Assembly (NCBI GenBank): GCA_021234155.1
Contig: JAJEKV010000026.1
Coordinates: 17,264,468 to 17,328,467 of the forward strand
DNA length: 64,000 nt
Direction of reading: 5' to 3'
Source of the DNA: Isoetes taiwanensis
Taxonomy: Eukaryota > Streptophyta > Lycopodiopsida > Isoetales > Isoetaceae
How positions within the stretch are numbered: position 1 is the stretch's first letter; the number at the start of each line of letters is the position of its first letter. The translations under genes and the position numbers were made by a program. Below, piece by piece: positions 4,201-51,352 of this stretch. The notes beneath the pieces were generated by a model. It saw only the letters and a list, made by a program, of their open reading frames with translations. It ran no database searches and had not been told where the DNA came from.

Positions 4201-6012
4201 TCGAAAATAAATTCTGATTTTTTGTCATTTGGATTCCTAATCCATCTCCAAGACACACCCAATTTTCAAAATTTTAGGAGAAGGTCTAGGTCAAAGGGTT
4301 AGCATTAGAACGGTCGGGGCAGCCCCGCGGGGGCAACCGAAGTGGCACCCTTCCCCAAGTCAAATGAGGCCAGGACCTTGCGGGGATCCCTCACAAGAGG
4401 GGAGAGTGGGAGGACCCAAGAGGCGGGATCCAAAAAGTTCGAGGCAGCCCTTCTGGCGGCGCTCCCGGGGGCTGCGCTAATGACCACCCTCCCGGGCCGG
4501 TTCCCCTATCCGGCCGTTGGATCCTCCGTTCGGGGCCCCTCTTCGGGAAGGCCCAAAAGATTCCAGATCGGCCCGAGAACTTGTTAAACGGGCCCCCGAG
4601 GTCGGCCTTGTAGAAACCGGGTGATGTCTTGTCGTTGGGCACCGGGAGGCTCGAATGGCACCCATCTCCCTGCCAAATTGTGGAATGGCTAAATTACCCT
4701 AGGGAGCAAGTTACAAGGTCGGTTTTGCAAAAGAAAGAAACACTCACGCCCTCCACGGCAAGATCCCCATCCACATCCTAGGCCAATTGACTCACGAGTG
4801 TGATGGAAGTGAGCTACTTTGCTTCTTGGAGGTCGGGTGGTCTTCGCCACGGAACTTGGTCCCTGTGGCAATGTCGACGTTTCGAGTCCATTAAGAGCCA
4901 AATCGCGATTCCTGAGAGGGGAGGTCGCCTAAGCCTGGCCCCGGGGGCCTTGGGGAGAGGAAATCGGGGCAAGCGGCGGGGGGGGATTTTAGGTCCGTGG
5001 TTTCCGCTCAACACCCCACTCCATCGTCATGTCACGGCGCAAGGTCCCCGCCTCGACCGACAAGGAGAGGGCCTCCAAAACGTAAACCCCGTGGGTTGCA
5101 GGGTTCTAGAAGGGTTTGCGTTTTGGGGGCGAGACTTGGTCATTGCACTTGGGACTTGGCCGAGAAGCCGCAGCCAGAGAATACGGAACAAGGGGAACCG
5201 GCGGAGCGGAGTTTGGGTCTGTCCTCCTCCCGATGTGGCAAGTAGAAGTCGGGGGGCTTTTGCAAAGTGGCAAGACATTCATAAATTCGCAATTAATGCA
5301 TTGTACCAAAATAAATTCTGATTTTTGTCACTGGATTCCTAATCGATCTCCATCACCTGACCCAATTTTGAAATTTTAGGAGAAGGTCTAGGTCAAAGGG
5401 TTAGCATTAGAGCGGTCGGGGGCAGCCCGTTCTGGCAACCAGAGCTGGCACCCTTCCCCAAGTCAAGCGAGGCCGGGGACCTTGCAGGGATCCCTCACAA
5501 GAGGGGAGAGTCCAGGACCCAAGAGGCGGGATCCAAAAAGTTCGAGGCAGCCCCTTCTGCGCAGCTCGGGGGCTGCACGCTAATGACCACCCTCCGGAGC
5601 TCGGTTCCCCTATCCGGACCGTTGGATCCTCCATTCGGGGGCCCCTCTTGGGAAGGCCCAAAAAGATTCCAGATGGGTCAGGGAGAACTTGTCAAACCGT
5701 GGGCGCCCCGGGGGCGGCCTTGTAGAAACCCAGCGATGTCTTGTCGTTCGGGCACCTAGGGAGGCTCGGAATGGCAAATCGACCCTTCCAAATCGTCCGG
5801 AATGGCGAAATTACCCTAGGGAGCAAGTTACAAGGTTGGTTTTGCAAAAGAAAGAAACACTCACGCCCTCCACGACAGTATCCCGCATCCACATCCTAAG
5901 CCAATTGACTACGAGTGTGATGGAAGTGAGCTACTTTGGCGCTTCTTGGAGGTCGGGTGGTCTTCTGGCCACGGAACTTGGTCCCCAGGGCAATGTCGAC
6001 GTTCTGGGTCCA
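1300..6012 (+). repeat. GC-rich tandem array, unit about 1.1 kb, left part
   Basis: Anchor words recur at regular steps. The word CAAATCGCGATTC lies near 2724, 3813 and 4899, and the phrase GAGAAGGTCTAGGTCAAAGG lies near 3190, 4279 and 5382. This gives units of about 1086-1103 bp. Copies near 1300-1840 and 2170-2810 are partial, and about 1850-2160 is a diverged insert that also recurs at 16315-16430. Open frames in the array are short, differ between copies and match no family, so I read it as a noncoding complex repeat. The array is cut at 6012 by the CACTA element and resumes at 15750. Confidence 0.8.
6010..6012. repeat. Target site duplication CCA, left
   Basis: CCA directly precedes the CACTA terminus and is repeated at 15750-15752. 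Three base pairs is the length expected for CACTA elements. Confidence 0.9.
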
Positions 6013-12500: not shown

Positions 12501-13600
12501 TTTAAATTTGTCCTTGGTAATGACCTATAGGCTTTAGCCAAAATTGAAGATAAATTGACTTTAAATAGATAAGAAAATAATGTTGCAACAACAAAGCATT
12601 GCCATTATTTTTGTGCAAATAGGTAAAAAATACGGTGAGGAAAAAGTATAGCATCAACGGCTGGGATGAATGGGAAATAAATGGTCGAGATTGTGATCCG
12701 GTGCTTTGACGTTATTGGCCACAGCGGAGATTCAGGAGGCAAAACCCTCTTTTGTTTCATTTTGCCGCCTCCTGTTGCGCGCCTTTTAAACCGTGGTCCT
12801 TGCAAGTTCTATCAATCCGACCGTTGCTGACCGTTGGATCAAGGTAAGGTTATTTTCCATAATCATCAGAATATTCGCTTTTAAAGAATATTCCAGTGAT
12901 TATCCTGATAATCTCGCGAATATTCTTTTCAACAATAGATACTGTCGCAGATTCTGGCATAGCTCTGTTTCAAGTCTGTTCCGGCATGGCATGGCTCTGT
13001 TCCGGCATATCTGTTCTGGCATAGCTATTGCTTCATAAGTGCCATGTTTTGAACCATATTTTTCCAGAATAGAATGGGCCTTTTGCTCTGCAGGACCTGT
13101 GAAAAAAATCGGCAAAATACCCCTTAGAAAGGGCTGTTCAATCAGTCAGGGACCAAAGCCAAAGCCATGCCCAAAAAAACTATGGTTACGGCTATGGAAT
13201 CGGAGTAGAATAAGCTCGAAGTCGTTTTCAGAGGTCGGATGTGGTTGGAAAAAGGATGCAAGGCAGATTACGCTGCAGAAATGCAAAAGCCCAGCAAAGG
13301 GAGCTCCAGTTGTTTGATTTTGTAGATCTGGAGCACTTTTCCTTTGCGACCGCTTCATACCTTCCAAAATTATCTTCTTCATTTCGTTTCAGGGAAAACT
13401 CGGACCACAGGCTTGAACCCAAACATGATGCTAAGGAGTCTAAACCCACCTGGGAGTAACGCTGTTGCAACTCCATAGCTCCAGAGATGGTGATCCATTC
13501 AGTGCAGCATTTTGGAAGTAAAAAAAGAAGCCAAATACAAAGGAATTGGCAGAAACCACAAACTGGTAACAGCGACAGAACAAGCTTTCTTAAGAACTTG
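9600..13600. other. CACTA interior without recognisable gene
   Basis: AT-rich DNA with short open frames, for example 10664-10930 and 10911-11261 on the plus strand. None of them matches a family I know. A phrase containing CGAGATTGTGATCC occurs at about 12297 and again near 12692 in similar surroundings, so part of the stretch is an old duplication. I find no TnpD-type transposase motif. Confidence 0.5.
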
Positions 13601-13618
13601 CTCGGACCTCGGTTTAAG

Positions 13619-13721
13619 GGAGGTCAACCCTCCCCTCTCGGGGATTATGGCAACAACCCTCTCGGCCTCCCGGCCTCGAGGGTTATTTGCCATAATCCCC
13701 TTGAGGGGAGGGTTAACCTCC
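13619..13721. repeat. 35-bp imperfect inverted repeat forming a long hairpin
   Basis: The arms 13619-13653 and 13687-13721 differ at three of 35 positions. The 33-nt spacer holds a second small pair, AACCCTC and GAGGGTT. The outer arm ends in GGGGATTATGGCAA. It may be a foldback element or a small-RNA-producing hairpin; neither is shown by sequence alone. Confidence 0.8.
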
Positions 13722-13938
13722 TCTTCTCTCCTTCGATTTCTTTTTTCTCTCTTCCTATTCTTGATCTTCCTGATGTGGGGATAGCGCAGTGGCTATGGCC
13801 TAGTTTTTTCTAGAACAGAGCAAAGGCGGTCATGGAGAGCCCGGATTTACAGCTAAATGGACGGAGTAACAGGGAATGCCGGATTTACAGCAAAAGGTAC
13901 AGTTCTGATTGAAGTACATCCGCTTTCCATTCGGAATC

Positions 13939-14208
13939 ATGGAGCATGGATTTTTCCAAATGCCTCTACATTACCCTAAATATAGTCGACCACAGTATGA
14001 GGCCATGCCGGAATGGCAGCTTGATCGGTTGATTGAGGAATATGGCTTTGCAGGAAAAGAGGGATTTCGCAATCGGTTCTTTTATTTGGAATATCTAGGC
14101 TTCTTTGCGCCTTCTTTGCCTAGAATATGGTTGTTTGATGGAGATTTCGGCAAAATATATACTCTGCTTTTCCATATCAGGGGCACTCCAGGCTTTCCAT
14201 TCGGGTAG
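13939..14208 (+). pseudogene. Captured plant gene fragment, DUF7722-like domain
   Basis: From the ATG at 13939 the frame reads MEHGFFQMPLHYPKYSRPQY and then EAMPEWQLDRLIEEYGF. This is the signature I know from small plant proteins of the DUF7722 type: a hydrophobic 'FQ.PLHYP.Y' followed by an acidic 'Y..MPEW.LD.LL.EYGL' helix. Their function is unknown. After about 50 residues the sequence continues into low-similarity hydrophobic residues to a stop at 14208, so the true C-terminus is probably lost. It lies 1.5 kb inside the right end of the CACTA element. I infer gene capture, which CACTA elements are known to do. Confidence 0.55.
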
Positions 14209-14209
14209 C

Positions 14210-15749: not shown

Positions 15750-17190
15750 CCATTGGCAGAGCCAAATCGCGATTCCGGAGAGGGGAGGTCGCCCGTCCGT
15801 CCCCGGGGCCTTGGGGAGAGGAAATTCGGGGCAAGCAGCTTCCGGGGGGATTTTAGGGTCCGTGCTCTGGCGTCAACACCCCCACTCCACGTCAAGTCAC
15901 GGCGCAAGGTCCCGGCCGAATCTGACAAGGAGAGTGCCTCCAAAACGTAAACCATGTGGGTTGTCAGGTTCTAGAAGGGTTTGCGTTTTGGGGGCCGAGA
16001 CTTGGTCTGTTGCACTAGAGACGGAGCAAGGGGAACTGACGGAGCAGAGTTTGGGCCTGTCCTCCTCCCGATGTGGCAAATAGAAGTCGGGGGGCGCTTT
16101 TGCAGTGGCAAGACATTCATAAATTCACAATTAATGCATTGTACGAAAATAAATTCTGATTTTTTGCTGACGTGACATCTCACAATAAAATCCTAAAGTA
16201 CTAGGGCCTGGACTATGAAGTCGGTGTAGGCTGTGAAGAATCCGAGGAGGTCGGGTGGTCTTCTGGCCACGGAACTTGGTCCCTAGGGCAATGTCGACGT
16301 TCTGAGTCCATTGGCTTGTGATGATGGTTGTGTTTCAGTATCAAGGCATATGGATAGAGAGAATGCCCCTGTTCAACGGACTGCTCCCTAAAGCTATTTG
16401 ACATGGATGGCATAACTAACTTGTAATGAACTGGTTTTGTTTCTCAGAAACAATTGTACCTTGATGAAAGATTGCTTCATAGTTTCCAAGTGGAAATTTT
16501 TTTAATGTATCCGCACCGCCTTGTTGCCCCCCTGGTCAAAGACTCGCCTTTTTTCGATGCACACTCTTTTAGTTATGCATTTTATTGCATTTATGGTTCA
16601 TAAATTCGTAGTTAATGCATGGCATGGAATTAAATTATGGTTTTTGGTCAGCTGGCTTCCATGGTCATCACCCGGCATACGAGGAAAATTTCCAAAATTT
16701 TTTGGATAAGGTCCGGACCAAGCGTTGGGGTTAGAACGGTCGGGCAGCCCGTTGTTGGGCAAGCATGACCGGCACCCTTCCCAAGTCAAAAACAAGGCGA
16801 GGACTTTGAATGGCCACCTCGGTGGGGAGAGTCCCGTCCCAGAGGCGGACTCCAAAAGCGTTCTCGAGGCGACTGTCCTGGCGCACCCCCGGGGATCAGT
16901 ATGCTAATGAACACCCTCCCGAGGCTCAGTTCTCCTATATATCCGACCGTTGAATCCTCCGTTAAAGGATCCAGCTCCGAGCAGGACCAAAAAAATCCAA
17001 GATCGATCCGGGAGAACCTGTCAAACCGCGAAGCGTCCTGGGGCGACCGTCCCCAGGAACGGCGATTCGACTTCGCTCATACAATTTTCGCTGGTAGTAA
17101 TAGAATCCGGAATGTGATTGACTGCATGCATGCCTCAGGACTGTTCAAATAAGCCTAGGGACAAACTTTAATGAGCATCACATTAAAAAA
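15750..17190 (+). repeat. GC-rich tandem array, right part, then a diverged unit
   Basis: The unit interrupted at 6012 resumes here in the same orientation (GCCAAATCGCGATTCCGG near 15758) and runs to about 16180. The block 16315-16430 repeats 2062-2192 with about 95% identity. The part from 16660 to 17090 is a more diverged copy of the second half of the unit. It still has GCTAATGAACACCCTCC near 16901 and CCGACCGTTGAATCCTCCG near 16940. In that copy the word CTATATATCC replaces CCCTATCCGG, so it could carry a TATA-like promoter. Confidence 0.75.
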
Positions 17191-23000: not shown

Positions 23001-23640
23001 ATTTTTTGATGTAAGTTATGTGAACATATTATTTAAGATATCAACCTTAAATATTAGTACTTTGTCATCTAAATTTGTTGTTTTGTTCATTCTCTTCACT
23101 TAGAATACATTGTAAAGTGCTCAAAAGGTTCTTAATCGGGACGGGATATGTATATTGACGGTAGACATAAACACGCTTTTATATACCCACCATTTATGCC
23201 GGGACGCTCTTCCTAAGAAGGATGATGAGGGAAGTGTCTTTATACTACAACGGAGGGACGCTGGATCACAAATAATATCTCTCGTTTATGGCCTCCCCGC
23301 GGTATGGGGGAGTGGCCTGGCTTTATGACCAACGCGAAATAGAGAGCGCCAAAAATAAAATGAAACAAGTTTCCGTAGATAGAAAAAGCAAAAGGCGCTT
23401 AACCGAAGAAGCTCACTTCGATGATGGGAAGCTTCTAAAAAAAGGAGGTACATGACCTAGTCATAGTCTTGTTTTTATTATTTTGATATTGGCGTTGATC
23501 TATCGATTTATGTCAAAGGCAAAGAGTGGTCAAGGAACTGGCGGACTTTAAAAAAAAGAAGGAGGCATTGGTCAAAAGTCCCTAAACCACTTAATCTCCA
23601 CAAGGAAGATATCAAGGTATCAAGCCTCAGAATGCTTTGG
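23000..23640. other. Unassigned DNA before the second pyrimidine tract
   Basis: Short plus-strand frames (for example DAGSQIISLVYGLPAVWGSG near 23250-23310) may be remains of a gene, but I recognise no family. The rest is noncoding AT-rich DNA. Confidence 0.35.
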
Positions 23641-23654
23641 GATGCAAAGAAGAA

Positions 23655-25515
23655 AAGCCATATCCCTTTCCCTTTCCCTTTGCTCTATCCCGTGATTTCA
23701 TTTTTCTTATTTTCTACTTTTTTTCTTTTTCCTTTCTTTTTCTCGCCTTTCTCACATGTTTCCTTGTTTTCCCATCCCTTTCCTTCCCCCTTCCCTCGCT
23801 CCCGATAATTTTTTCCCTTCCCTTTTTCTCTTTTCTCCACCTTTTCCCTCTTCTCTCTTTTTCTTTGCCCTTTTCCTTCCCCCTTTCCCTTTTTTTATGC
23901 CTTCTTTTCCCCACCCTTTTTTCCATGTCTTCCTTTTTTCTCAACCTTTTACTCTTTCTCGCCCTTTTCCATGCCTATTTTCCCTTCTCTTTTCCTCCTT
24001 TTCCCACTCTTTTTTTTCCTCCCTTTTTGTGCCTTTTTCCCTTCCATTTTTCTTTTCTCCCTCCCATTTTCCATGCCCTTTTTTACCTTCCCTTTTTCCA
24101 TCTCCTCACCCTTTCCCTCTTTTCCCTTTTCCATGTTCCCTTTTTCTCTTCCCCTTTTCCATTTTCCCTCATTTCCTTTTTCCCCGTGGCCTCTCTCTTC
24201 CCCTTTTCCATTCTTTTTTTTTTTTTCTATTTCCCTCTTTTCCCATGCCCTTTTTCCCTAACTTTTTTCTTCTTTCTATTTTTCCTGCGGTTTCCTTTTT
24301 TCCCTCCTCCTTTTCCCACCCTTTTCCCTCTTCCCTGCAGGTAATTTTCCCTTCTTTCAAACCCTTCCTTTTCCTTTCTCTTTTCCTTTCCTCATGTCCT
24401 TTTTTCCCTTTCCCTCCCCTCCATCACCCCCCCTCGGCTTCCCCTTTCCCATTTCCATTTCTTTTCTTGATGCTTTGTCGATCCTTTTCCCAGGTGACAC
24501 TTTTTCCTTTTCCTTTCCTTTTCCTTTTCCCCTTTTTCCATGCCTTTTGTAATACATTTGTTTTATTCTCTTATTTTCTATACCCATTTTCCTCTTTTTC
24601 CCCACCCTTTCTCTCTTGCCCTTTTTCTTTTTTTCCCCTTTTTCTTTTTTTTCGCTTTTTCCTTTTTAATTCCCTTTTCCCATGCCTTTTTCCTTTCACC
24701 AACTGCTTCTTTTTTCTCCTTTTATTTTCCCTTTTTTTCCTTTTTTCTCTTTTCCTTTTAATCCTTTTCCCTTTTCCCCATGCCTTTTGCCCTTCACATT
24801 CTCTCTTCCACTTCCCTTTTCTTTTCCTTTTTTCCCTTTTCCTTTCCCTTTTTTCTTTTTTCCCTTTTCCTTTTACCCTTTTCCCTTTCCCCCCATGCCT
24901 TTTTTGCCCTTCACATTCTCTCTTTCCACTTCCCCTTTTCCTTTTGCCCTTTTCTTCTCCCTTTTTTTTTTCCCCCTTTTTTTCTTTTTTTACCTTTTCC
25001 TTTTTTTCCTTTTTCCTTTTCCCCATGCCTTTTACCCTTTTCCCCTTTTCCCCATGCCTTTTTTCCTTTCACCACCCTTTTATCCTTTTCCCTTTTCCTT
25101 TTACCCTTTTCTTTTTCCCCCATGCCTTTTGCCCTTCACATCTCTCTTTCCACTTCCCTTTTCCTTTTTTTCCTTTTTCTTTTCCCTTTTCCTATTTTCC
25201 TTTTCCTTTCCCCTTTTTTTCCTTTTTCCCTTTTCCTTTTACCCTTTTACCTTTTCCCCATGCCTTTTTAACCTTCACATTCTCTCTTTCCACTTCCCTT
25301 TTCTTTTTTTCCCTTTTTCTTTTTTCCCTTTTCCTTTTTGCCTTTTTCCTTTTCCCCATGCCTTTTTTCTTTTCCCCCCCCTTTCTCTTTTCCTTTTTTT
25401 TCCCTTTTTTCCCTTTTCCTTTACCCTTTTTCCCCATGCCTTTTGCCCTTCACATTCTCAGCTCTTTCCACTTCCCTTTTCCTTTTCCCCCTTTTCATTT
25501 ACTCTTTCCCCTTAA
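23655..25515. repeat. Polypyrimidine tract, 1.9 kb, with higher-order repeats
   Basis: The plus strand is almost pure CCCTTTTCC-type sequence. From about 24770 to 25480 a longer unit recurs, marked by CCCCATGCCTTTTGCCC followed by TTCACATTCTCTCTTTCCAC at roughly 24777, 24893, 25121, 25256 and 25434. Open frames of up to 611 codons are low-complexity F/P/L/S strings, and I reject them as genes. Confidence 0.9.
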
Positions 25516-25739
25516 GAGATCGAACGCGATGACCAATCACAAAGTGTTGTTAAGTCGCGTAATAAATCTAGGCCTTCGAATGCATCCGTGATGATCTCAC
25601 CATTAAATTTAGGGGCTCGATGCACTACGACACTACGGTATAACATTTTATAATATAAGAAGATAAGAACTTTTAAATGTCACTAGCTAATACTCGTTAT
25701 ATTGTCATAGGAACATCTATACGGGTTTCCCCTAACAAG

Positions 25740-26300: not shown

Positions 26301-26810
26301 CCTACACGCCAGATGCGACGTATCCACGCGGTTTTTTTTGCCACGCGGGCTTTTTCTACACGCCGGATTTTTCGATTTTCCCGCGGTATATTCCACGCGT
26401 TTATTCCATCGCGGTGACGCCGCGATGGTAACGATACACGCGGCTTTTACGCGATGTATATTCCGTGGTGTATATTCCACGCGGTATATTCCACGCGGTT
26501 CCCGTTCTGACGTGACGACGCCGCATGCACGATACACGCGGGTTTTTATGGGCACGACGTGGATTTTGTTGATGTTTCACGCGGTATATTCCACGCGGTA
26601 TATTCCACGCGGTATATTTCACGCGGTCACGCCGCATGCGACGATCGCGGTCACGCCCCGCACGACGCCATACGGCGACGCCGCCGACGCGTCGAGATGC
26701 GACGCGACGCCGCATGCGACGCGGTTTGCGGGCTGACGCCGCGTGACGACGCCTGCGCGATGCCGCCAACGTCGCGATAGACGCCGCACGCACGCCGCTA
26801 AATGACCTTT
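26300..26810. repeat. CpG-dense repeat block, possibly part of a 5' LTR
   Basis: In an otherwise AT-rich region this 0.5 kb is packed with CpG. The 14-mer CCACGCGGTATATT, complete or slightly varied, recurs about seven times. GACGCCGCATGCGACG-type words recur near 26520, 26630 and 26705. It ends about 55 bp before a tRNA-Met-type primer binding site, so it may belong to the retrotransposon's 5' LTR. However, I find no matching copy in the 3' LTR region, so this is only a guess. Confidence 0.7.
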
Positions 26811-26865
26811 TTCTTGTTAAAGCGGTGGAGTGCAACCGTGATAATGCAGTAGGGGACGCCACAAG

Positions 26866-26877
26866 TGGTATCAGAGC
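26866..26877 (+). other. Primer binding site (initiator Met tRNA type)
   Basis: TGGTATCAGAGC is the standard plant LTR-retrotransposon primer binding site, complementary to the 3' end of initiator methionine tRNA. The preceding ...CCACA AG would place the 5' LTR end at about 26863. Confidence 0.85.
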
Positions 26878-27068
26878 AATGTTCTTGGAGACCAAGAGCA
26901 AAGCACCGCCATGCTCCCAAGAGAGTACTAACTTGATAGGATCCTCAAACCTCGAAAAATGGGAAATTTTTTCTCATTTTTGTAGTATATGCTAAGCTAG
27001 TAAAGTTAAGTGAATTAGAACATAAAAAGACTAAAATTAGTGAGCCAAAACCTTCAAAAAGTAGGATG

Positions 27069-27134
27069 GTCTCACACGTCAAGGCCAGAGCAATAATGAA
27101 AAGTTCATTTTGAGTCGGGCTAACGCGGTGAGAC
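27069..27134. promoter_or_regulatory. Nested dyad hairpin 1
   Basis: It begins GTCTCACACGT and ends ACGCGGTGAGAC, with ATGAA/TTCAT at the centre. It is the most diverged of the four copies (others at 27282, 28949 and 29149) and lies upstream of the H3-like ORF. Confidence 0.7.
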
Positions 27135-27281
27135 ATTGAGCCAAAAACACCTTGAAAAGTGATGAATTTTTTAAAAGTAACATGGTAATTCAATTTCAAG
27201 CTAAAAACTAGCTAGATTAGTATGTTACATTCCTAAAAAACATGCTTAGAAAGTATAAAATTTAGCATCAAAATTCACCAT

Positions 27282-27345
27282 GTCTCACAATGCCGCGCCA
27301 GAGCAAAATGAAACATTCATTATTGATCCAAGCAACGTATGAGAC
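27282..27345. promoter_or_regulatory. Nested dyad hairpin 2
   Basis: It begins GTCTCACAATG, contains CCGCGCC and ATGAAACATTCAT, and ends ACGTATGAGAC. It lies 213 bp after copy 1 and 164 bp before the TATA box of the H3-like ORF. Confidence 0.7.
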
Positions 27346-27445
27346 CATGAGGTTAGAAAAGTCTAAATTAAGCCATGTAATAGGTTAATAAGTGTCTTGG
27401 CTCACCCAAAAGAGTAATTTGAAATTTGACCTAAAATTGCCCATC

Positions 27446-27454
27446 TATAAATAG
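27446..27454 (+). promoter_or_regulatory. TATA box before the H3-like ORF
   Basis: TATAAATAG lies 108 nt before the ATG at 27554, followed by a stretch containing GACCCCCATTTC. The gag-like ORF has the same box at almost the same distance, 118 nt. The pair suggests an internal promoter for each ORF. Confidence 0.65.
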
Positions 27455-27553: not shown

Positions 27554-28835
27554 ATGGCCCGGACGAAACAAACTGCTAGAGTTCCTCCAGGTGATACAAC
27601 TCCCAGCTTCCTACTCCAAGAAATGCTTCAGGAGCGCCTTTTTCACCAAGGAGGCCATCCTTCATCGGGTGAAGGGACATCGTCCGAGGAGCATCCCGAC
27701 AACACCACCAACCAAGGAGGGGATGAGACAGAAGTGGAGGAGGACGCACACTCAGATGCGCGGACAGAAGTCCTCGACAATGAGGAGCCAAACGCCATGC
27801 AAAGAGGTTTTTGAAGAAATGGAGGAGGAAAGGAAGAAGAAGGAGGAACAAGATCGGGCGCCGAGGAGCATGAAGAACGAGAGAGCCGACCCTGACCCAA
27901 ATTGAAGAAGAAGAATTAGCGGCGTGGATAAAGAAGCACGGTTTAAAGAACGCCGAGAGAGGAAGAGAGAAGAGAAGAAAAGGAAGAGGGACTAAGAGGA
28001 AGCCAAAGCAAAGCAGAGGAGCTGAGAGTGAAGAAGGGAAAGTTCGTGGAGGGAGGCCAAAGAAAAACTCAAGAAGGCCCCACGCCCAAGGTCGCCATCC
28101 GTTAAGCTGCTCAGATTCAGCCCCCCACCCTCCCCTGGGATGACTCGGGAGGATGAGGACTTTAATCCCTTCAACAAAGAGGCGGGATCTTCGGCTGACC
28201 CCGCCAATGTGCAGCTCCCCGACCGAAAGCAGCCCGAAAGCAGCGGTAGGTCCCCACCATACCCGACGTGGGACAAAAACAAAGCGCCGCAGCCAGCCCG
28301 AGAGGCGTATGTGATAGACCCCGTCAAGGTCTATCAGAAGAAACTAAGGGAGCACAATGCCTTCATGGCGAAGTGGGAGGCGTACAACACATACTACCAG
28401 CAAAACAGAGTAAGAACTATCGAAGGTGGACATCCGACGAAGAACCAGACTCTAAAGCCGCCACCACAGAAGCCCAAACCTCCTAGACCACCAGGCAAAA
28501 AGAGAACCGGCAGAAAGGAGAGCGAGAGGAAAGCCGTGAGAGAGATCAGGCATTTTCAGCGTAGCTTCGGGTTCTTGATCCCCCGTGCACCGTTCGCCCA
28601 ACTAGTCCGAGAGGTAATTCAAGAATACAACACGGAGATGAGGGTGACGGATGAGATGTTGCTGGCACTGCAAGAGGCAACAGAACAAAAACTAGTGCAG
28701 CATTTTGAAGATTCGACAGCCTGCACAGTCCATGCAAAGAGAGTGACACTAATGAAGCAGAGGACATGCATCTCGCTAGCTACATCAAGGGAGAGCGACC
28801 GTAAAATTTTGGAAATAATAGAAAAATTTTGTTAA
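27554..28835 (+). CDS. Histone H3-like protein encoded in the retrotransposon (frame-shifted copy)
   Basis: The ATG at 27554 opens MARTKQTAR, identical to the start of histone H3; removal of Met would expose an H3 tail end including K4. Val then replaces K9. A Ser/Glu-rich acidic stretch follows to about 27810. In the next frame comes a charged, probably coiled segment (EEMEEERKKKEEQ), and one frame over AAWIKKHGLKNAE with basic GGRPKK. The frame 28090-28751 holds a Pro- and Lys-rich linker and then the H3 fold (28533 onward): VREIRHFQRS, PFAQLVREV, LLALQEATEQKLV, HFEDS, HAKRVTLM. The final helix, EDMHLASYIKGERP, is in the neighbouring frame and stops at 28802-28804; without the shift the frame runs on to 28835. 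About 415 codons in all, against 136 in H3. Three or four one-base frame changes disrupt this copy. The H3 homology is certain to my eye; the function is not known. Confidence 0.85.
28533..28804 (+). other. H3 histone-fold domain
   Basis: By hand alignment, roughly half of about 75 core residues match canonical H3, from the REIR helix to HAKRVT. alphaN reads REIRHFQRS, alpha1 PFAQLVREVIQEY, loop 1 NTEMRVT, alpha2 EMLLALQEATEQKLVQHFED, and loop 2 HAKRVTLM. Loop 1 has canonical H3 length. REIRHFQ and LIP in alphaN resemble plant CENH3 more than H3, whereas the short loop 1 is H3-like. K56 and K79 positions carry R and N. The last helix (AEDMHLASYIKGERP) aligns with PKDIQLARRIRGERA but is one frame away. 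Confidence 0.88.
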
Positions 28836-28948
28836 TATGAAGAGTTTTTGACAAGGTAACATGTGCAATCTTGCTTAATTGAGTTAAGTTACTGAGTTCT
28901 AGCTTTTGTTTTAGTTAAAACTGACATTTTGAACAAAATTGAGAGGAT

Positions 28949-29015
28949 GTCTCACACGTCGCGCCAGGAGCGAAAATGAAAAGTTCATTTTTGGTCTGGG
29001 CGCAACGTGTGAGAC
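28949..29015. promoter_or_regulatory. Nested dyad hairpin 3
   Basis: The outer arms GTCTCACACGT and ACGTGTGAGAC are perfect 11-bp complements. Inside lie GCGCC/GGCGC and ATGAA/TTCAT. It sits between the H3-like and gag-like ORFs. Confidence 0.85.
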
Positions 29016-29148
29016 CATGCCCCAAAACTGCCCAAAACAGCTCCAAATCGACCAAATAAGGGGTCAATTCTGCCTAACTCGATGAGTCCAGTAGAATTAG
29101 ACCCTTACATCACCCAAATTGGACAAGTTTAACCCATTTAGAGTCAAT

Positions 29149-29215
29149 GTCTCACACGTCGCGCCAGGAGCAAAAATGAAACTTTCATTATTGGTCTTGG
29201 CGCAACGTGTGAGAC
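29149..29215. promoter_or_regulatory. Nested dyad hairpin 4
   Basis: It has the same 11-bp outer arms as copy 3 and the same inner GCGCC/GGCGC pair, with ATGAAACTTTCAT at the centre. It lies 200 bp after copy 3 and about 240 bp before the second TATA box. Confidence 0.85.
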
Positions 29216-29387
29216 CTCTCAGCAAATTCTCCACCATCCTCCAGTTTGTTGCAATAGGTTCATGCTAATCTTAGCATGCTCAAACCCCAAAAGTATTCAA
29301 ATCCTCATTTGGACCTCCTAATAGGTCAGAATTGCCCAACCCCAATAAAATTCTAAGTCATCCAAAAATTAGGGTTTTTCCCTTGTC

Positions 29388-29396
29388 TATAAATAG
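29388..29396 (+). promoter_or_regulatory. TATA box before the gag-like ORF
   Basis: TATAAATAG followed by GCCCCCATTTCCC, as at 27446, lies 118 nt before the ATG at 29506. Confidence 0.65.
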
Positions 29397-29505: not shown

Positions 29506-30632
29506 ATGGCAACTGCTGACTTCAGGCGATGGTACAGCGCCAGTGCCCATGCAGCTGAGACCAACGTCAACAACATCTTCCAGCTTTTCCAGAAAGAGAT
29601 TGATGTCCAAGCAACCTTGCATACAACGCCAGCATATAGGCGAGTTTTAGCTGAGTTCCAAGCTAGGGTAGGTCAGTCCCTAGTACAGTTCCCCCCTTGC
29701 ACGGTCTATTTTGTTCCCCGCCCATCCCTACAAGCAGCCTTGGGTGATGTCCAGAACATTGCCAAGTATTTGATCAACAAGGCACAGAGGTTGCCAGACT
29801 ACATGGTCCCCGACAGCTTGGATGTGACCAAGTACTTTTCCTACACCGCCACGCTTGGCCATATTCCTTTCCCACCGCGGTCGAAAACCCAATAGCATCC
29901 TTAGCAAAGCTGCAATGTGATGCTTTTGCGCATTCGCCAGGAGCAAGAAGGAAGAACAGAAGAAGAGGAATCGGAAGATGAAGAATATGTGGAGCTCGAC
30001 CCAGCAGAAGAACAGCGGTTAGCGGAAGAGGAGTTAACCAACTTCGAGCGAAGCCGCCAGACCCTCAGAGTCGCTCCCCCACTTGGGCTAGGCATCACAA
30101 GCCTAGCCCCCATCATCATTGACGGTGAGGAGTACCTGCTCCTCACCGATATCCGATATCTCCCCAATGCGTGTAGAGGGAGTTCCGCTTGACGAAGTTG
30201 CCGCACCAACCAGGGCAAAGAACCGCATTTGGACGACTTCATCGCCCGTGGAGTCTCGTGACTTCCCGCTTCAGTGAGAGAAGCCGACACCCACTCTGTG
30301 GGAGTCGACTTCGACATCCAGCCTACAAAGAACATAAGGCAAATAATGGAAGCTTGAGAACTGCCATCTGAGGAGGAGTTCTACATATGCCATCCAAGAA
30401 CGGATGGGGATCCGTGTCAAGACCACGAGCATCTTGATGCCGAGTTCTTCGACACCATCTCGCACAAGAGGAGCAGGAATCGACGTCAGGCGAGTTTCAT
30501 CGACAATTAGATACTACCAAGAAATCACTGAGGTAGAGGTCGATGAATACGCTGGAAGGCATAGAGCGGGAGGCCAAGCAGGTAGAGAGTCATCAGCAAC
30601 ACACAATGACAGGTCATTGAGGTACTACCTGC
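29506..30632 (+). pseudogene. Gag-like ORF, broken
   Basis: The frame from 29506 reads MATADFRRWYSASAHAAETN and continues with a helical segment (NNIFQLFQKEIDVQ) and KYLINKAQRLPDYMVPDSLD to a stop at 29895. After two stops it resumes in the same frame at about 29920 with a strongly acidic stretch (EEEESEDEEYVELD) and VAPPLGLGITSLAPIIIDGE to 30192. Later pieces near 30220-30510 include EEEFYICHPRTDGDP in other frames. I call it gag from its position before the protease and its helical, acidic make-up. I see no CCHC zinc knuckle and no capsid motif I can name, so the assignment is by context. Confidence 0.5.
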
Positions 30633-31067
30633 TTGTCCTTGAAGGACACCTGCTTCCTTTCCTGCCACATCTTTGCTGCTATAGATACAAAACAGGCAGA
30701 GAATCAGTATAGAGTAATTTCCACAATAGGGAACGCCAAAACCAAGTCCTTCATAGTCCTAATAGACTCGGGAAGTAGCCACAACTTCGCTTCCCCAAGG
30801 ATGGTCGACATATTGAAGTTTAAACCCTTAAAGTCCATGCCAAGGCCCGTAATCTTGGCGAGCGGAGCAATAAGACAAACGGCAGGGAAGAGGATCAATT
30901 TCGACATTGACTTGCCAGAAATTAATATCTCGATGGGGAGCGTAAGTAATGGACATCGGCAAGTACGATTGATAATAGGAATGGAGTACCTTGGACCAAG
31001 AGGGGCCATCATTGACCCGTGGAAAGTGGAAGGTGACCCTCACAACGCCCGACGACAAAGTTATTGA
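30633..31067 (+). pseudogene. Retrotransposon aspartic protease domain
   Basis: The frame contains VLIDSGSSHNFAS (active-site DSG near 30765), then ILKFKPLKSMPRPVILASG and VRLIIGMEYLGP, the order seen in gypsy retropepsins. Cleavage of the Gag-Pol polyprotein is the family's role. The frame stops at 31067, and the reverse transcriptase begins in another frame near 31216, so the polyprotein is interrupted here. Confidence 0.85.
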
Positions 31068-33323: not shown

Positions 33324-34127
33324 CGGATGGGCAAACGGAGCGCATCAACAAGTAATATTGGAGGATATGCTACTTAAACTATGTCCGAACAAGCAAGGTA
33401 TGTGGTAGGAATTTATTCACTTGGTGGAATTTGCATACAATAGCACCAAGCAGAATCATCCAAAATGTCGCCATTCATGATCAACTACGGCTACCAATGC
33501 CTAACTCCGCATTAATTTGGCACAACCCCGTGTCAAAAGTGGAAGTTTCGCAAAGAAATGTTGGGCGACATGCAGCAGCTCGTGGAAGAAGTTCGAGGGT
33601 ATCTTCGCAAAGAAGGAGTCGACAAAAGAGCATCGCCAACAAACATCTGGACAGTCGTGAGAGTTCCAAGTTGGAGATGATGTATGGCTCAAGATCAAGG
33701 TAAAGCAGCGAAGTCTCGCGATCGAAATTGTAAGAAGCTTGCTCCAAGGTGGGCTGGACCCTTCGTAATAATCCAAAGAGTAGGTAACCAATCCTACAAG
33801 CTAGACTTGCCAAGACACTTAAAGATCCACAAAGTCTTCCACGGAGTTTGTCAAGAAGCACACCCCAATCCGCATGAAGTCTCGACACTCCAACGATGTT
33901 GGAAATGACGTAAGAGCAGATAGAAATAGTTCCGTAACTAATTCTTGATAAAGCCGCTCAAGAAAACAAGGAGATCGGAGTTTCTCCAATACTTGGTCAA
34001 GTGGAAACACTTGCCGGTGGAAGACGCAGAAAAGAGATCCGACAAAGCAAGCATCTACGCTTATGGAGCAATGGGACTACAAGGTCATCTCCCAAGAAAT
34101 CGGGCTCGTGCATGTCGATTTGTGTAG
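33310..34127 (+). pseudogene. Integrase C-terminal part with chromodomain-like tail
   Basis: Fragments in different frames continue the integrase. [20 protein letters not shown] lies near 33310, a FAYNSTKQNHPK-like piece near 33430-33465, and KLAPRWAGPFVIIQRVGNQS with KIHKVFHGV near 33738-33846, the GPF/Y module. At 33960-34030 the frame reads RRSEFLQYLVKWKHLPVEDA, the 'YLVKWKGLP.E..TWE' core of a retroelement chromodomain, although the Trp that usually follows is missing. In chromoviruses this tail targets integration to methylated H3 chromatin. In this copy it is decayed. Confidence 0.8.
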
Positions 34128-34976: not shown

Positions 34977-36640
34977 TGTGACGTTCCAAAGACGATATAC
35001 CGGCCTCAAGACGATATCAGATCAAGACACACACGCCAGCATTAACCCATTCCAATTGACGGTAACGCCGACGCAGTAACCAAGCAAGGGCTCTAGGGGG
35101 CAATCTTGTAAGGGGTGCATTACACTTAGCAATGTGCACACCTTAAAATCTTTAACCCATTAAGTGCGCATCAAGAGTCATGGAAACCCTAAACCTAATC
35201 GAGAGCCTATGTAAGGTAACCAAACCCTAATTTTTCCCTTTCCGGGCCCACTTAACCTTCCGAAGCTCCAGCCAGGCTACCGAGGAGTCAAATCCAACTT
35301 ACAAGATCTGCCCAGATGCCCTAGCTCATCGATTTCTTCCGAATCGCATCCCCGCTGCAACAACGACATGGACGATTCGATCAAGAGGAGGAACCAGTGG
35401 ATCAGGTATTTAGTCGATTTAATAGTCTAAATCAGATTCCAGCCATCGAACCAATAGGTTTAGCCTATTAAATTGACCTTAGTAGCCAAGCTGCATCCCA
35501 AGATTGGCTCTAACTAAAGAACCTAACTCTATGATATAGATTAGTTCTTATTCTTTAGTTCTATGATGATGTGATGGATGGATGAATTTCGTGGACTCAT
35601 TGTATTGGGAAGGGGGTAGAGACTTAAAGCTTAGTTAGTTGATGCTTTTAGCTAGTCCCTCTTAGTGCATTACTAGATTTCGCCTGTGGTACAAGAACCA
35701 CACCGGTTGTGGGTGAAGGGGCCGACCGGCTCGTAAGGAGGTTCGTGGTCCCGACTCTTGACCGATCCCTCCGTGTGTAAAGTCTACCGGGATCAATGTA
35801 GACTAGGTCTAATGGCTTGCCACCGAAAGTGTGGGTAAGGCATGGGCTCGACACCCGTGGAGTGGTGTTCACTTTCCGGTGGGTTAAGTCGAATAAGGGC
35901 AAAGGGCCCTCTAGTCACCTTGAGTCAAGATGGAGACCCCTCGTGGGAGTGATCCCTACCCGCCCCATCTGAATCGGGAGATGCCGTGAATAGCCCCTTT
36001 GGCTATGCATCCCGGGCGGGCCAGTCCCAACACTCTTCAACCTACTCCAAAGTGCAACAAGAGGGGCGGATGGAGTGGACAACCCTATGCCATGTTCTCA
36101 TGCCGCCCAAATCCATTGTCATGATTCCGCTCGCGAATGAACTGAGACCTGCCGGGCTACCATTCCCTCGAGTCCGAGCCTTGGGTAGGAACCCACTTGT
36201 ATTGTGCTGATCTTTGTCTATGCAGATGTTGATGTGCCATCCTTCAAGGTGGATATGTGATGATTATGTGTACTGACATGTATGTTTACGCTTCCGCAGC
36301 TAGGTAGGCCCTGGGGTAAAATGACCCCTTCACTCTTCCCACTGGGACCCAGTATGGTTACAGTGATATGTGGAGGGCCCTGTATCAACATGGAGCTGGT
36401 ATGGGGGATGAACTCCTCGCTTGTATACCTGAGTGAGTGCACCGACGCATAATGACAGTAGCCATTGATGTAGAACGATTGTTGCAACTCCCCTATACAC
36501 TGGCCATTTCTTTTGCAGGCGGGATGCCCTAACCTTGCAAAGTTCCTTCTTACGGTTACAGAATTGAAGACTCCTTTGTTTGTCGCCACCATATACGGAT
36601 TGTTACCCAACCCTTGACAGTAACCTTTGTGAATTATGGC
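34977..36640 (+). other. Putative 3' LTR, right border not determined
   Basis: The sequence starts TGTGACGTTCCAAAG right after the polypurine tract. It then has LTR-like noncoding text with CCTAAACC and AAACCCTAA words near 35190-35230 and a GC-richer part to about 36200. I could not find the matching 5' LTR upstream of 26863, so the length and right end are open. The 5' copy may be lost, diverged or replaced. Confidence 0.45.
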
Positions 36641-49256: not shown

Positions 49257-51352
49257 ATGCTCGGATGGAAATTCAAAGACTTTGTTGTTAGAAGGAAGAG
49301 AAGATTAAGAGGTGAGACATATAAAAGAGGTTGCATGTGTCATTTTTCGCCAAGCAATTGTATATTAAACCCGAGTGGACTCAAATTATCTACTATCAAA
49401 GGAAGCATGTTAACATCCATGGAGTGTTTTGCCATGGGAATGCGCGACGAAGGTAGTCTCAAGACTAGGTACCGGCTTGCACCGTGGCTTTCAAAAAGAG
49501 AAGAAGGAATGGGTTAAGTCTTTGTTGGTGGATCTGCCATTCGGTAGGGAAGTTATGAAATTGCATGAGCATGAAGTTGTTCATAAGCTACAAATGTATG
49601 GGGAGGATAGCAAAGACAGGGATGACTTTCTCGAAATGGATGACATAGGTAACATATTTGATGAGGTTTCAAGGGGTACATGGAAACGTCATAACAATGT
49701 AACTCAAAGTGTTAGGATGTGGGTAGACCAAAATCCAGGGTCAGTGTTCTTGCATCAAGAAGGGGTGCCTTTCCATCTTGGAATCATGACACCATTTCAA
49801 ATGGAAATGCTCTTGAAGTATGGAAAGGGGAATGCAATTGCAATGGATGCCACTTTCAAGACAAATGACTTGAGGTTTAGTCTCTATACATTGATGGTGT
49901 TTGATAGTCATAGGAATGGAGTGCCGGTTGCATGGATCTTGGACGCCTAGTGCCAACGAAGATCAACATTCAAACCCGGCTCGAAAGCACTTGAAAATCC
50001 ATATTCATAAGAAAGATCCTGAATGGTCTCCCTCTTGTTTTATAGTTGATGATGCGATCTTTGAGATTGGTGCATTGGAGGTCAGATGGCCAAACATTCC
50101 CATCCAGCTATGTCTTTGGCATGTGAGACGTGCATGGTGGAAGGTTTTGATGAGACATGTGCATGACCCACAAGTTCGAAACGAGATGTTCAAGGACATG
50201 GGAGATATCATGTATAACACACATGTAGAACCCATAGAGGAGGATGGAGTGTTTAAAGATGAGTACAGAGAAGCTTGTGCTAGGGCTGGGGCTGCCCGCC
50301 TTGAGGAATTCAAATCGAAGTGGCAAAATTATGTTGAGATTGTGGCTTATGTCAATAAAGAGTGGACAAAGAATGTGTGTTCATGGATTATGGTGGCAAG
50401 GATGTATCCTCATAGTAATCAAGAGACAACTGCAGCTGTAGAGTCCTATCATGCTGCCCTAAAAAGGAGATTGGGTATTTTTAAGCACGAGCTAAGAGGA
50501 AGAAGATTGGATTGGTTGATATACATGTTAGTGAGTGATCTAGGGAACCACTTTATATATGATAGATTCGTGAAGGAAAATGGTTTCAAGCTGAATTATT
50601 ATAAAGAAATGGTTGTGGAGTGCGCAATAGTTGGAGCTAGGGCTATTCCAGATGACGCTGTTACTTGGACAAATTTTGAGGAAGGAGAGGCTCAGGTCTG
50701 GAGCCAATCAAGGCATGGAATTCCTTACTTTGTTGTTGTGAGTGACAAACAGTGGAGTTGTTGTGATTGTGCTTGGGGGACAAAGGGAAACATATGCAAA
50801 CACCAAGTTAAGGTGCTTCAAATGATGACTAATGCTCAGGAGAGAGAAATTTTGGCAGCATGTGGCACTATGATGGGGACAATGAAAGGTGGTTTAGAAA
50901 ACTTAGAATTCCATCAAGATGTTGCAAATATGAATGGTTGTGAAGAAGTCATTGAAGAAGTTGGTTGTCCCCCGGAAAGGGTGAATCTTGAGGGAGAGGT
51001 TGGCAAAGACGAAGGAAAAACCTATGCTGAAAATCAAAGTTCTCTATTGGCAAGTATAGAGGGTTCAATCAGACATGTGAAATCAACAATCGAAGAATGT
51101 CCTGGACTGTTGCATCATGTTGACTTCCTTATGAAGGAAGTTTGCAACAAGATACACTTGTTGAAAATTACATCACATCAAATGGGGATTAATGACATTC
51201 CACCACCTATGGCAGAAGGCAAGGACGATGGCACGGGCAATAGTCTCACTCGATTAAGATCTTTCATAGACCTTGGCAAGAAAAGCATTGGCACCATCCA
51301 TTATGAGAGTACCTTTGAGATTGATATGCATAAGCATCTACAAGATGAATAG
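49257..51352 (+). pseudogene. MULE (Mutator-like) transposase with SWIM zinc finger
   Basis: The order is that of a plant Mutator-like transposase. An N-terminal part near 49320-49520 reads CMCHFSPSNC in shifting frames. The first catalytic Asp lies in AIAMDATFKTNDLRFSLYTL (near 49840), followed by GVPVAWIL. One frame over, from about 49925, come CFIVDDAIFEIGA and IQLCLWHVRRAWWK (second Asp with the CxxH motif) and ETTAAVESYHAALKRRLG (Glu). The SWIM finger follows near 50755-50805: WSCCDCAWGTKGNICKHQVK, with CxC...CxH. A C-terminal helical region runs to TAG at 51350. The main break is one frame change near 49930-49945. The 483-codon second part is otherwise open, so this copy is fairly young or under past selection. 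I found no element termini with a 9-bp duplication. Confidence 0.9.

What the first reader, a model, noticed from the sequence alone, without database searches (positions are those of the whole stretch)
27554..28835. A histone H3 encoded inside an LTR retrotransposon
Seen: between a tRNA-Met primer binding site (26866) and the gag/pol region, on the same strand, an extra ORF has an H3-identical N-terminus and a complete H3 fold (REIRHFQ, PFAQLVRE, LALQEAT, HAKRVTLM). Known: gypsy elements encode Gag and Pol, sometimes an env-like or other extra ORF; I know of no standard plant gypsy lineage with a histone. Inference: the element captured and strongly modified a host H3 gene, perhaps to package its DNA, to alter chromatin at its own copies, or to choose integration sites.
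Basis: partly seen in the sequence, partly recalled or inferred. Interest (0 to 1): 0.97.

Follow-up and report, generated by a model that had tools for sequence, protein, structure and literature searches.

The report
Histone H3 gene inside a retrotransposon
A family of jumping genes in what appears to be a quillwort genome carries, as a regular part kept by natural selection, its own much-altered copy of a core chromatin protein (histone H3), so the element may be building or manipulating chromatin for its own benefit.

Summary
The window copy is a decayed Ty3/gypsy chromovirus with an H3-fold ORF (Pfam Histone 2.6e-20) between the tRNA-Met primer site and pol. A search of the window's own genome gave 145 matches, the window included (144 of 10,604 candidates scored). 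Assembly statistics match Isoetes taiwanensis. In 10 of 10 copies read with flanks the H3 ORF follows a TATA-like motif; 9 of 10 have a second accessory ORF downstream and 8 of 10 protease or RT. One copy lies between two LTRs with a 4-of-5-base flank repeat. Seven of 56 copies keep one open frame of 412-467 aa. The H3 fold evolves at dN/dS about 0.07, the first eight residues, ARTKQTAR, at about 0.04 (44 of 56 copies). K4 is kept in 44 of 44; K9 is replaced in 40 of 44. A second family carries a more canonical H3. I recall no described retrotransposon with a selected histone gene; my paper searches listed none. Function is inferred: most likely an H3 variant or tail mimic that can carry the K4 mark but usually not the K9 silencing mark.

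The parts
26802..26863 (+). remnant of the 5' LTR end (ends ...CACA)
   Evidence: matches the 3' end of family 5' LTR regions at 80-87% in 6 of 11 queries; family LTR ends GGGGACGTCACA directly before the PBS
26866..26877 (+). primer binding site TGGTATCAGAGC (initiator tRNA-Met type; tRNA identity recalled)
   Evidence: sequence; TGGTATCAGAG present in 8 of 10 copies
27060..27353 (+). two imperfect palindromes (27060-27137, 27278-27353) upstream of ORF1
   Evidence: folded (-26.2 and -16.3 kcal/mol); 2 to 4 hairpins of this kind found upstream of ORF1 and ORF2 in each of 10 copies, one of them (C1081) hardly more stable than shuffles
27445..27454 (+). CTATAAATAG, TATA-box-like, 108 nt before the ORF1 ATG
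   Evidence: TATAAATAG at the corresponding place in 10 of 10 copies
27554..27811 (+). ORF1 start: MARTKQTAR, H3-identical N-terminus, and first part of the long tail (frame closed at 27812)
   Evidence: found at 6 of 9 residues or better in 44 of 56 copies, dN/dS 0.036 over codons 2-9 of those 44
28032..28757 (+). ORF1, rest of tail and most of the H3 histone fold (fold about 28533-28757)
   Evidence: Pfam Histone 2.6e-20, PDB H3 chains, nucleosome entries in Foldseek
28758..28804 (+). last helix of the H3 fold, AEDMHLASYIKGERP-stop, in another frame in this copy
   Evidence: the corresponding end (for example QDMHLASYIKGERP) is in frame in many other copies
28940..29220 (+). two strong palindromes (28940-29019, 29143-29220) upstream of ORF2
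   Evidence: -45.1 and -45.6 kcal/mol; the region resembles 27063-27346 at 65%
29387..29396 (+). second CTATAAATAG, before ORF2
   Evidence: present in 9 of 10 copies
29506..30630 (+). ORF2 (MATADFRRW...), second accessory ORF of unknown function, broken here
   Evidence: no Pfam match, no convincing PDB match
30630..30663 (+). junction where ORF2 end and gag are deleted in this copy
   Evidence: blastn against copy C1018a: 6619 joins 8421
30663..31064 (+). aspartic protease
   Evidence: Pfam matches below the curated cut-offs; RVP_2 2e-9 in copy C941
31446..33320 (+). RT, RNase H, integrase ORF (625 aa)
   Evidence: Pfam RVT_1 7.7e-39, RT_RNaseH 7.1e-34, Integrase_H2C2 1.7e-18
33324..34028 (+). 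degraded integrase C-terminus and chromodomain-like end
   Evidence: tblastn with P0113; Chromo PF00385 1.1e-9 in copy C941
34966..34976 (+). polypurine tract
   Evidence: sequence; same motif before the 3' LTR in C941 and C1018b
34977..36444 (+). 3' LTR (TGTGACGTTCC...)
   Evidence: matched by 10 of 11 family LTR-region queries at 75-87%

Best explanation
Shown: a family of Ty3/gypsy chromoviruses in this genome carries a captured, strongly modified histone H3 gene (ORF1) as a recurring accessory gene, behind a TATA-like motif, between the primer site and ORF2-gag-pol, and selection keeps both the H3 fold and the first eight residues ARTKQTAR. Inferred: the protein (412-467 aa in the open copies: ARTKQTAR, about 300 or more variable residues, H3 fold) enters nucleosomes with host H4, or at least displays an H3-like N-terminus in chromatin. 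Because it keeps lysine 4, the site of the activating mark and its readers, but has mostly lost lysine 9, the site of the H3K9me2 silencing mark on which plants rely to shut transposons down, it most likely works as an anti-silencing histone at the element's own copies or in host chromatin.
For: Identity: Pfam Histone 2.6e-20 in the window and 1.2e-24 in copy C941; PDB H3 chains; the best Foldseek hits are nucleosome entries. Recurrence: 145 matches in the genome, the window included, 144 of 10,604 candidates scored. Place in the element: of 10 copies, 10 have TATAAATAG then H3, 8 the exact PBS, 9 ORF2 downstream, 8 protease or RT downstream on the same strand. C1018b lies between two LTRs with GCTTC/ACTTC flanks. 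Selection: H3 fold dN/dS 0.067 (1073 usable of 1540 pairs) against 0.25-0.27 for the tail and 1.2-2.5 for off-frame controls; ARTKQTAR codons dN/dS 0.036 while synonymous codons vary (44 of 56 copies). K4 44 of 44; position 9 is V in 38, K in 4, S in 1, I in 1 of 44. In 41 of 56 copies with an uninterrupted fold, C110, H113, K115, R116, D123, R72 and R83 are kept in 39-41 of 41 and R69 in 37 (structural roles recalled).
Against: No expression, protein or chromatin data. Features that could hinder normal nucleosome entry: the RPGT segment before helix 1 is lost, R63 is P in 41 of 41, and the helix-2 chaperone site reads EMLL in 40 of 41 instead of SAV(L/A) (role of the site from PMC9145170 section 9). 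K9 is kept in 4 of 44 copies, and 12 of 56 copies had no recognisable nonapeptide. Both copies with two recognised LTRs have a damaged ORF1 start. No MARTKQTAR was seen in the 900 bases translated upstream of the one family B copy read. No H4 was seen in the element.
Confidence: 0.45

Rival explanations
1. Soluble tail mimic: the ORF1 protein is not built into nucleosomes but presents ARTKQTAR to titrate or recruit host H3K4 readers, writers or demethylases, with the H3 fold serving to bind H4 or chaperones.
For: The nonapeptide is the most constrained part measured (dN/dS 0.036, in the 44 copies that have it). The long divergent tail, the loss of RPGT and the altered chaperone motif EMLL in 40 of 41 copies speak against ordinary deposition.
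Against: The whole fold, including residues of the H3-H3' interface and DNA contacts, is kept under dN/dS 0.067, more than a mere tail display would seem to need.
Confidence: 0.2
2. Packaging or nuclear handling of the element's own nucleic acid: the H3-like protein binds the cDNA in the particle or pre-integration complex.
For: The gene sits in the element next to gag-pol and is selected with it.
Against: It has an H3-specific N-terminus that is not needed for DNA compaction, and no partner histone was seen. Gag with a capsid domain and a weak zinc-knuckle match is present in the two other copies scanned for it.
Confidence: 0.12
3. Integration targeting: variant nucleosomes or the tail mark places where the element's chromodomain integrase inserts, or stop it inserting into its own marked chromatin.
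For: Pol ends in a chromodomain (Chromo 1.1e-9 in C941), and chromodomains of chromoviruses are known to read H3 tails (recalled). In one place two family A elements lie in tandem (C941) and in another a family B element lies close to a family A copy (C1057).
Against: K9, the usual chromodomain ligand (recalled), is missing in 40 of 44 copies. No insertion-site survey was possible.
Confidence: 0.15
4. Chance insertion or hitch-hiking of an H3 pseudogene, amplified with the element but without function.
For: The window copy itself is broken, and 49 of 56 copies do not have one unbroken MARTK-to-end frame. H3 capture by hAT transposons in Pseudocercospora fijiensis gave copies that were inactivated (PMC6710886 abstract).
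Against: dN/dS 0.067 in the fold and 0.036 in the N-terminus against 1.2-2.5 off frame. Open 412-467 aa frames in 7 copies in a family whose mean fold dS is 0.78. A second family carries an H3 as well.
Confidence: 0.02

Closest known systems
Ty3/gypsy chromoviruses of plants
   Same: tRNA-iMet type PBS, gag-PR-RT-RH-INT order, chromodomain end, LTR ends TG...CA
   Different: two extra ORFs before gag, one of them a histone H3, each behind hairpins and a TATA-like motif; pol identity to the 120 listed proteins tops out at 59%, and about 55% for hits covering over 90% of the query
Giant gypsy elements of Phalaenopsis orchids with an AlkB RNA demethylase (PMC9289625; abstract and one results section read)
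   Same: a host-type factor fixed as an additional ORF in a gypsy lineage, argued to counter host control
   Different: different protein. In that paper's screen of 121 angiosperm genomes the section I read names no histone among the extra domains
Histone H3 captured by hAT DNA transposons in Dothideomycete fungi (PMC6710886; abstract and passages seen)
   Same: histone H3 amplified by a mobile element, to hundreds of copies in P. fijiensis and tens in Pyrenophora tritici-repentis
   Different: DNA transposon. In P. fijiensis most copies are truncated and all but the original are inactivated by RIP; in P. tritici-repentis many copies are called potentially active. No long new tail is mentioned in the passages I saw
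Viral single histones: bracovirus H4, Manila clam xenomavirus H3, phycodnavirus H3 (review PMC9145170; passages and section 9 read)
   Same: one core histone in a parasitic genome, often with an extended N-terminal tail; bracovirus H4 enters host nucleosomes and acts through its tail
   Different: DNA viruses. The word retrotransposon does not occur in that review's main text. The H3 tail extensions given there are 35, 53 and 68 residues, not about 300
Plant CENH3
   Same: REIRHFQ, LIP and RVTLMK motifs; among the best sequence hits of the domain, up to 58%; some protist H3-like proteins reach 57%
   Different: loop 1 aligns gap-free to canonical H3 and with a gap to plant CENH3; the C-terminus is IKGERP-like as in canonical IRGERA; the tree does not settle the origin

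Membership tests
Ty3/gypsy chromovirus | PR-RT-RNaseH-INT gene order | tested here: met
   order in copies
Ty3/gypsy chromovirus | chromodomain at the integrase end | tested here: met
   PF00385 1.1e-9 in C941; degraded in the window
Ty3/gypsy chromovirus | two LTRs with TG...CA ends, PBS, PPT and target-site duplication | tested here: met
   C1018b LTRs 1152-2704 and 12632-14209, 88.7% identical over 1482 bp, flanks GCTTC/ACTTC with 4 of 5 bases alike. Two LTRs recognised in 2 of 10 fetched copies; the window's own 5' LTR is truncated
Ty3/gypsy chromovirus | gag capsid domain | tested here: met
   Retrotrans_gag 1.8e-17 in C941 and 3.8e-14 in C1057; deleted in the window copy
Histone H3 | H3-type histone fold | tested here: met
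Histone H3 | H3 N-terminal sequence ARTKQTAR | tested here: met
   34 of 56 copies exact, 44 of 56 at 6 of 9 residues or better
Histone H3 | short tail (about 37 residues) with K9 | tested here: not met
   tail about 325 residues in the reference copy; K9 in 4 of 44
Histone H3 | assembly into nucleosomes | not testable with these tools
   needs protein work
CENH3 | longer loop 1 and CENH3-type C-terminus | tested here: not met
   alignment (gap-free to canonical H3, gapped to plant CENH3), C-termini
CENH3 | phylogenetic placement with plant CENH3 | tested here: inconclusive
   support 64/4; family A with family B, or with B and canonical H3, not rejected (p-AU 0.098 and 0.129)
Transduplicated host pseudogene | no selection on the captured coding sequence | tested here: not met
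   dN/dS 0.067 and 0.036

The most novel reading that the evidence does not exclude
A retrotransposon lineage makes its own chromatin: it has long kept a private histone H3 whose tail can carry the activating K4 mark but, in most copies, not the K9 silencing mark, so that the element (or the host chromatin around it) is wrapped in nucleosomes resistant to silencing. A similar arrangement exists in at least two element families, with perhaps thousands of H3 genes in one plant genome (about 10,600 and 9,000 first-look candidates, of which only some 145 and 135 were scored).
Probability: 0.33. Interest if true: 0.97.

Novelty: new variant of a known kind. Interest (0 to 1): 0.93.

Why it matters
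Core histones are among the most conserved host proteins, and plants silence transposons chiefly through histone and DNA marks. A retrotransposon that keeps a private H3 under strong selection, with K4 constant and K9 mostly lost, gives a direct way to ask whether transposons can counter silencing at the level of the nucleosome itself. It also warns that histone gene counts in such genomes, and antibodies against the H3 N-terminus, may be confounded by element-encoded copies, and it offers a natural library of H3 variants diverged from canonical H3 yet under selection.

Tried and rejected
Chance or pseudogene insertion: rejected by recurrence and selection. Neutral-decay simulation on the window copy alone was only mildly informative: 255 of 2000 runs from canonical H3 (281 of 2000 from a CENH3) showed no stop, and 20 of 2000 had as conservative replacements; it was superseded by the copy comparison. 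Origin from CENH3: motifs and best hits suggest it, but those searches favour proteins sharing exact words, loop length and C-terminus suggest canonical H3, and the trees are inconclusive (long branches). In one search I translated the family B row in the wrong frame; one search corrects it. ORF2: no Pfam or convincing PDB match, the model is useless (pLDDT 33), and its similarity to the ORF in the same place in family B is not significant (29.7% over 37 aa, E 0.29). Viral contigs: 26 stretches matched a pattern, none encodes a relative. No Rfam or tRNA match in the window. LTR search inside the window failed because the 5' LTR is truncated. The H3 model has a wrong last helix, because the window's frame breaks there. 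Co-occurrence of H3 with all RT copies could not be counted: the RT search did not complete.

Full report
What was claimed and what is there. The primer site TGGTATCAGAGC is at 26866. MARTKQTAR starts at 27554. ORF 28032-28835 scores as Pfam Histone at 2.6e-20 over residues 141-243 and matches H3 chains of the PDB at about 1e-20. A model of this stretch matches nucleosome entries (mean pLDDT 78.7, best E 2.5e-4, last helix wrong because of the local frame break). The C-terminus of the fold continues in another frame to a stop at 28802-28804. In this copy the gene is therefore broken in several places.

The copy in the window. It is a decayed element. Only about 62 bp of the 5' LTR end remain before the PBS, and the 3' LTR begins at 34977. 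Protease, RT, RNase H and integrase are recognisable. The integrase end and chromodomain are degraded. Compared with copy C1018a, about 1.8 kb containing the end of ORF2 and gag is missing at 30630-30663.

The host. The window lies in an assembly of 1,658,258,908 bases in 1110 contigs. The Isoetes taiwanensis paper reports 1658.30 Mb in 204 scaffolds plus 909 contigs (PMC8566536, passages seen). I infer this quillwort; no tool named the organism. That assembly is Nanopore-based and short-read polished (same passages), so some frameshifts in single copies may be assembly errors. The word histone does not occur in the main text of that paper or of the I. sinensis genome paper PMC10541799 (term counts).

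Recurrence. Searching the genome with the window ORF gave 145 matches, the window included and two of them pieces of one locus; 144 of 10,604 first-look candidates were scored. Besides the window itself identities run from 62 to 95%. Counts are lower bounds. I fetched 10 copies, chosen for long open frames, with 18 kb each. Of these 10: H3 core in 10, TATAAATAG before it in 10, a second TATAAATAG before ORF2 in 9, the exact PBS motif in 8, an ORF2 hit in 9, protease or RT downstream on the same strand in 8, two recognisable LTRs in 2, exact MARTKQT in 7. In C1018b the LTRs lie at 1152-2704 and 12632-14209 (88.7% over 1482 bp), flanked by GCTTC and ACTTC. In C941 the LTR parts are 98.3% identical over 1071 bp and a second element follows, which suggests a young insertion. 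Against a simple picture: both these copies have a damaged ORF1 start, a stop inside the nonapeptide in C1018b and no MART start in C941, though their H3 folds lie in open frames of 447 and 486 aa and the second element at C941 (L026) has the exact nonapeptide. Gag, protease, RT, RNase H, integrase and chromodomain were found in order in C941.

The protein. Among 56 copies (the window's own included), 7 keep one open frame from MARTK past the fold, 412-467 aa. The reference row has 416 residues, with the fold starting near residue 327. So the protein is ARTKQTAR, then a long variable charged tail, then an H3 fold ending like canonical H3 (for example QDMHLASYIKGERP).

Selection. Copies were projected onto one reading frame and compared pairwise (Nei-Gojobori). 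H3 fold: mean dN 0.052, mean dS 0.782, ratio 0.067, 1073 of 1540 pairs usable (the rest saturated, too short or with too low dS). Tail: 0.27 and 0.25. Off-frame controls: 1.84 and 2.47 in the fold, 1.26 and 1.18 in the tail. pN/pS in the fold is 0.117 (resampling range 0.103-0.128), and 0.132 in the 23 lower-ranked copies. The copies are among the best-scoring ones, which biases towards conserved proteins; the lower-ranked subset suggests the bias is small. In the four copies with both genes, RT dN/dS ranged from 0.084 to 0.679 and H3 from 0.022 to 0.187; H3 was lower in 5 of 6 pairs and higher in 1. RT and H3 synonymous distances disagree between the same copies (for example 0.08 against 0.46), which suggests mosaic elements.

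The N-terminus. The nonapeptide was not in the search query. It is recognisable (6 of 9 or more) in 44 of 56 copies and exact in 34. K4 is kept in 44 of 44. Residue 9 is V in 38, K in 4, S in 1, I in 1. Codons 2-9 have dN/dS 0.036 with several synonymous codons in use. The 12 copies without a match were not counted there, which lowers dN somewhat.

The fold. Of 56 copies, 41 gave an uninterrupted fold; the other 15 were dropped. In the 41, C110 is C in 41, H113 in 40, K115 and R116 in 41, D123 in 39, R72 and R83 in 40, R69 in 37. R63 is P in 41, K79 is N in 41, the RPGT segment is gone, and the helix-2 motif at 87-90 is EMLL in 40. The review of viral histones treats that motif as the chaperone recognition site (PMC9145170 section 9). 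The fold is thus kept for H3-type contacts (residue roles recalled), but with a changed deposition site.

A second family. Canonical H3 as query finds 15 loci at 96-98% over all 136 residues (taken as host genes), then nothing until a large group at 71-86%, most rows starting at about residue 20-36, and about 50 of 135 rows (counted by eye) lying in open frames of 400 aa or more (150 of 9022 candidates scored). One such H3 lies in L020 downstream of a family A copy: 72% to canonical, 49% to family A, followed by another ORF, a gag-like ORF (by eye) and a protease 51% identical to the window's. So the arrangement recurs at deep divergence in at least one family B element. One capture with slower change in family B, or two captures, cannot be decided.

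How it may work. Shown: the gene is a selected part of the elements. Inferred: it acts in chromatin. The constant ARTKQTAR with K4 but mostly no K9 points to a protein that can be read and marked as active H3 but usually cannot take the K9 silencing mark; plants silence transposons largely through H3K9me2 and DNA methylation (established knowledge, recalled). I give the anti-silencing reading about 0.45 in its broad form, against a soluble mimic (0.2), integration targeting (0.15) and cDNA handling (0.12). Bracovirus H4, a single viral histone with an extended tail that enters host nucleosomes and acts through that tail (PMC9145170 passages), is the nearest working model.

Known and new. Chromoviruses and accessory genes in gypsy elements are known; orchid elements carry an AlkB demethylase (PMC9289625 abstract and one section). 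H3 has been captured by hAT transposons in fungi, in P. fijiensis ending in inactivated copies, in P. tritici-repentis leaving many potentially active ones (PMC6710886 abstract and passages). My paper searches bearing on histones in retrotransposons listed no paper whose title or abstract start describes a histone-encoding retrotransposon. The library holds only open-licence papers, so absence from print is not shown.

Limits. No transcripts, proteins or chromatin data; no census of all pol copies; host named by inference; structural roles of single residues recalled.

Noticed in passing
29506-30630 and L013, L019, L025, L027: ORF2, a second accessory ORF of about 500 aa (MATADFRRW...) with an acidic stretch, similar between copies, no Pfam or convincing PDB match; the structure model was useless.
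   Followed up: partly
27060-27353 and 28940-29220: Pairs of about 70 bp palindromes plus CTATAAATAG before both ORF1 and ORF2, a duplicated promoter-like module that recurs in the fetched copies; RNA hairpins down to -45 kcal/mol in the window.
   Followed up: partly
L009-L028: RT and H3 synonymous distances disagree between the same copies, suggesting recombination among elements.
   Followed up: partly
L020:3271-7922: A second element family with a more canonical H3 before an ORF, a gag-like ORF and a protease.
   Followed up: partly
49414-51352: MULE-type transposase with a weak SWIM zinc-finger match, split into two overlapping frames.
   Followed up: partly
1400-6000 and 15800-16310: Diverged direct repeats, many spaced about 1.1 kb apart, with further copies about 10.8 kb away.
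   Followed up: no
23600-25590: Long pyrimidine-rich low-complexity stretch open in several frames.
   Followed up: no
26325-26740: Repeated CACGCGG(TATATTC) motifs next to the truncated 5' LTR.
   Followed up: no
57423-58031 (-): ORF that looked to me like the end of a LINE reverse transcriptase; no Pfam match.
   Followed up: partly
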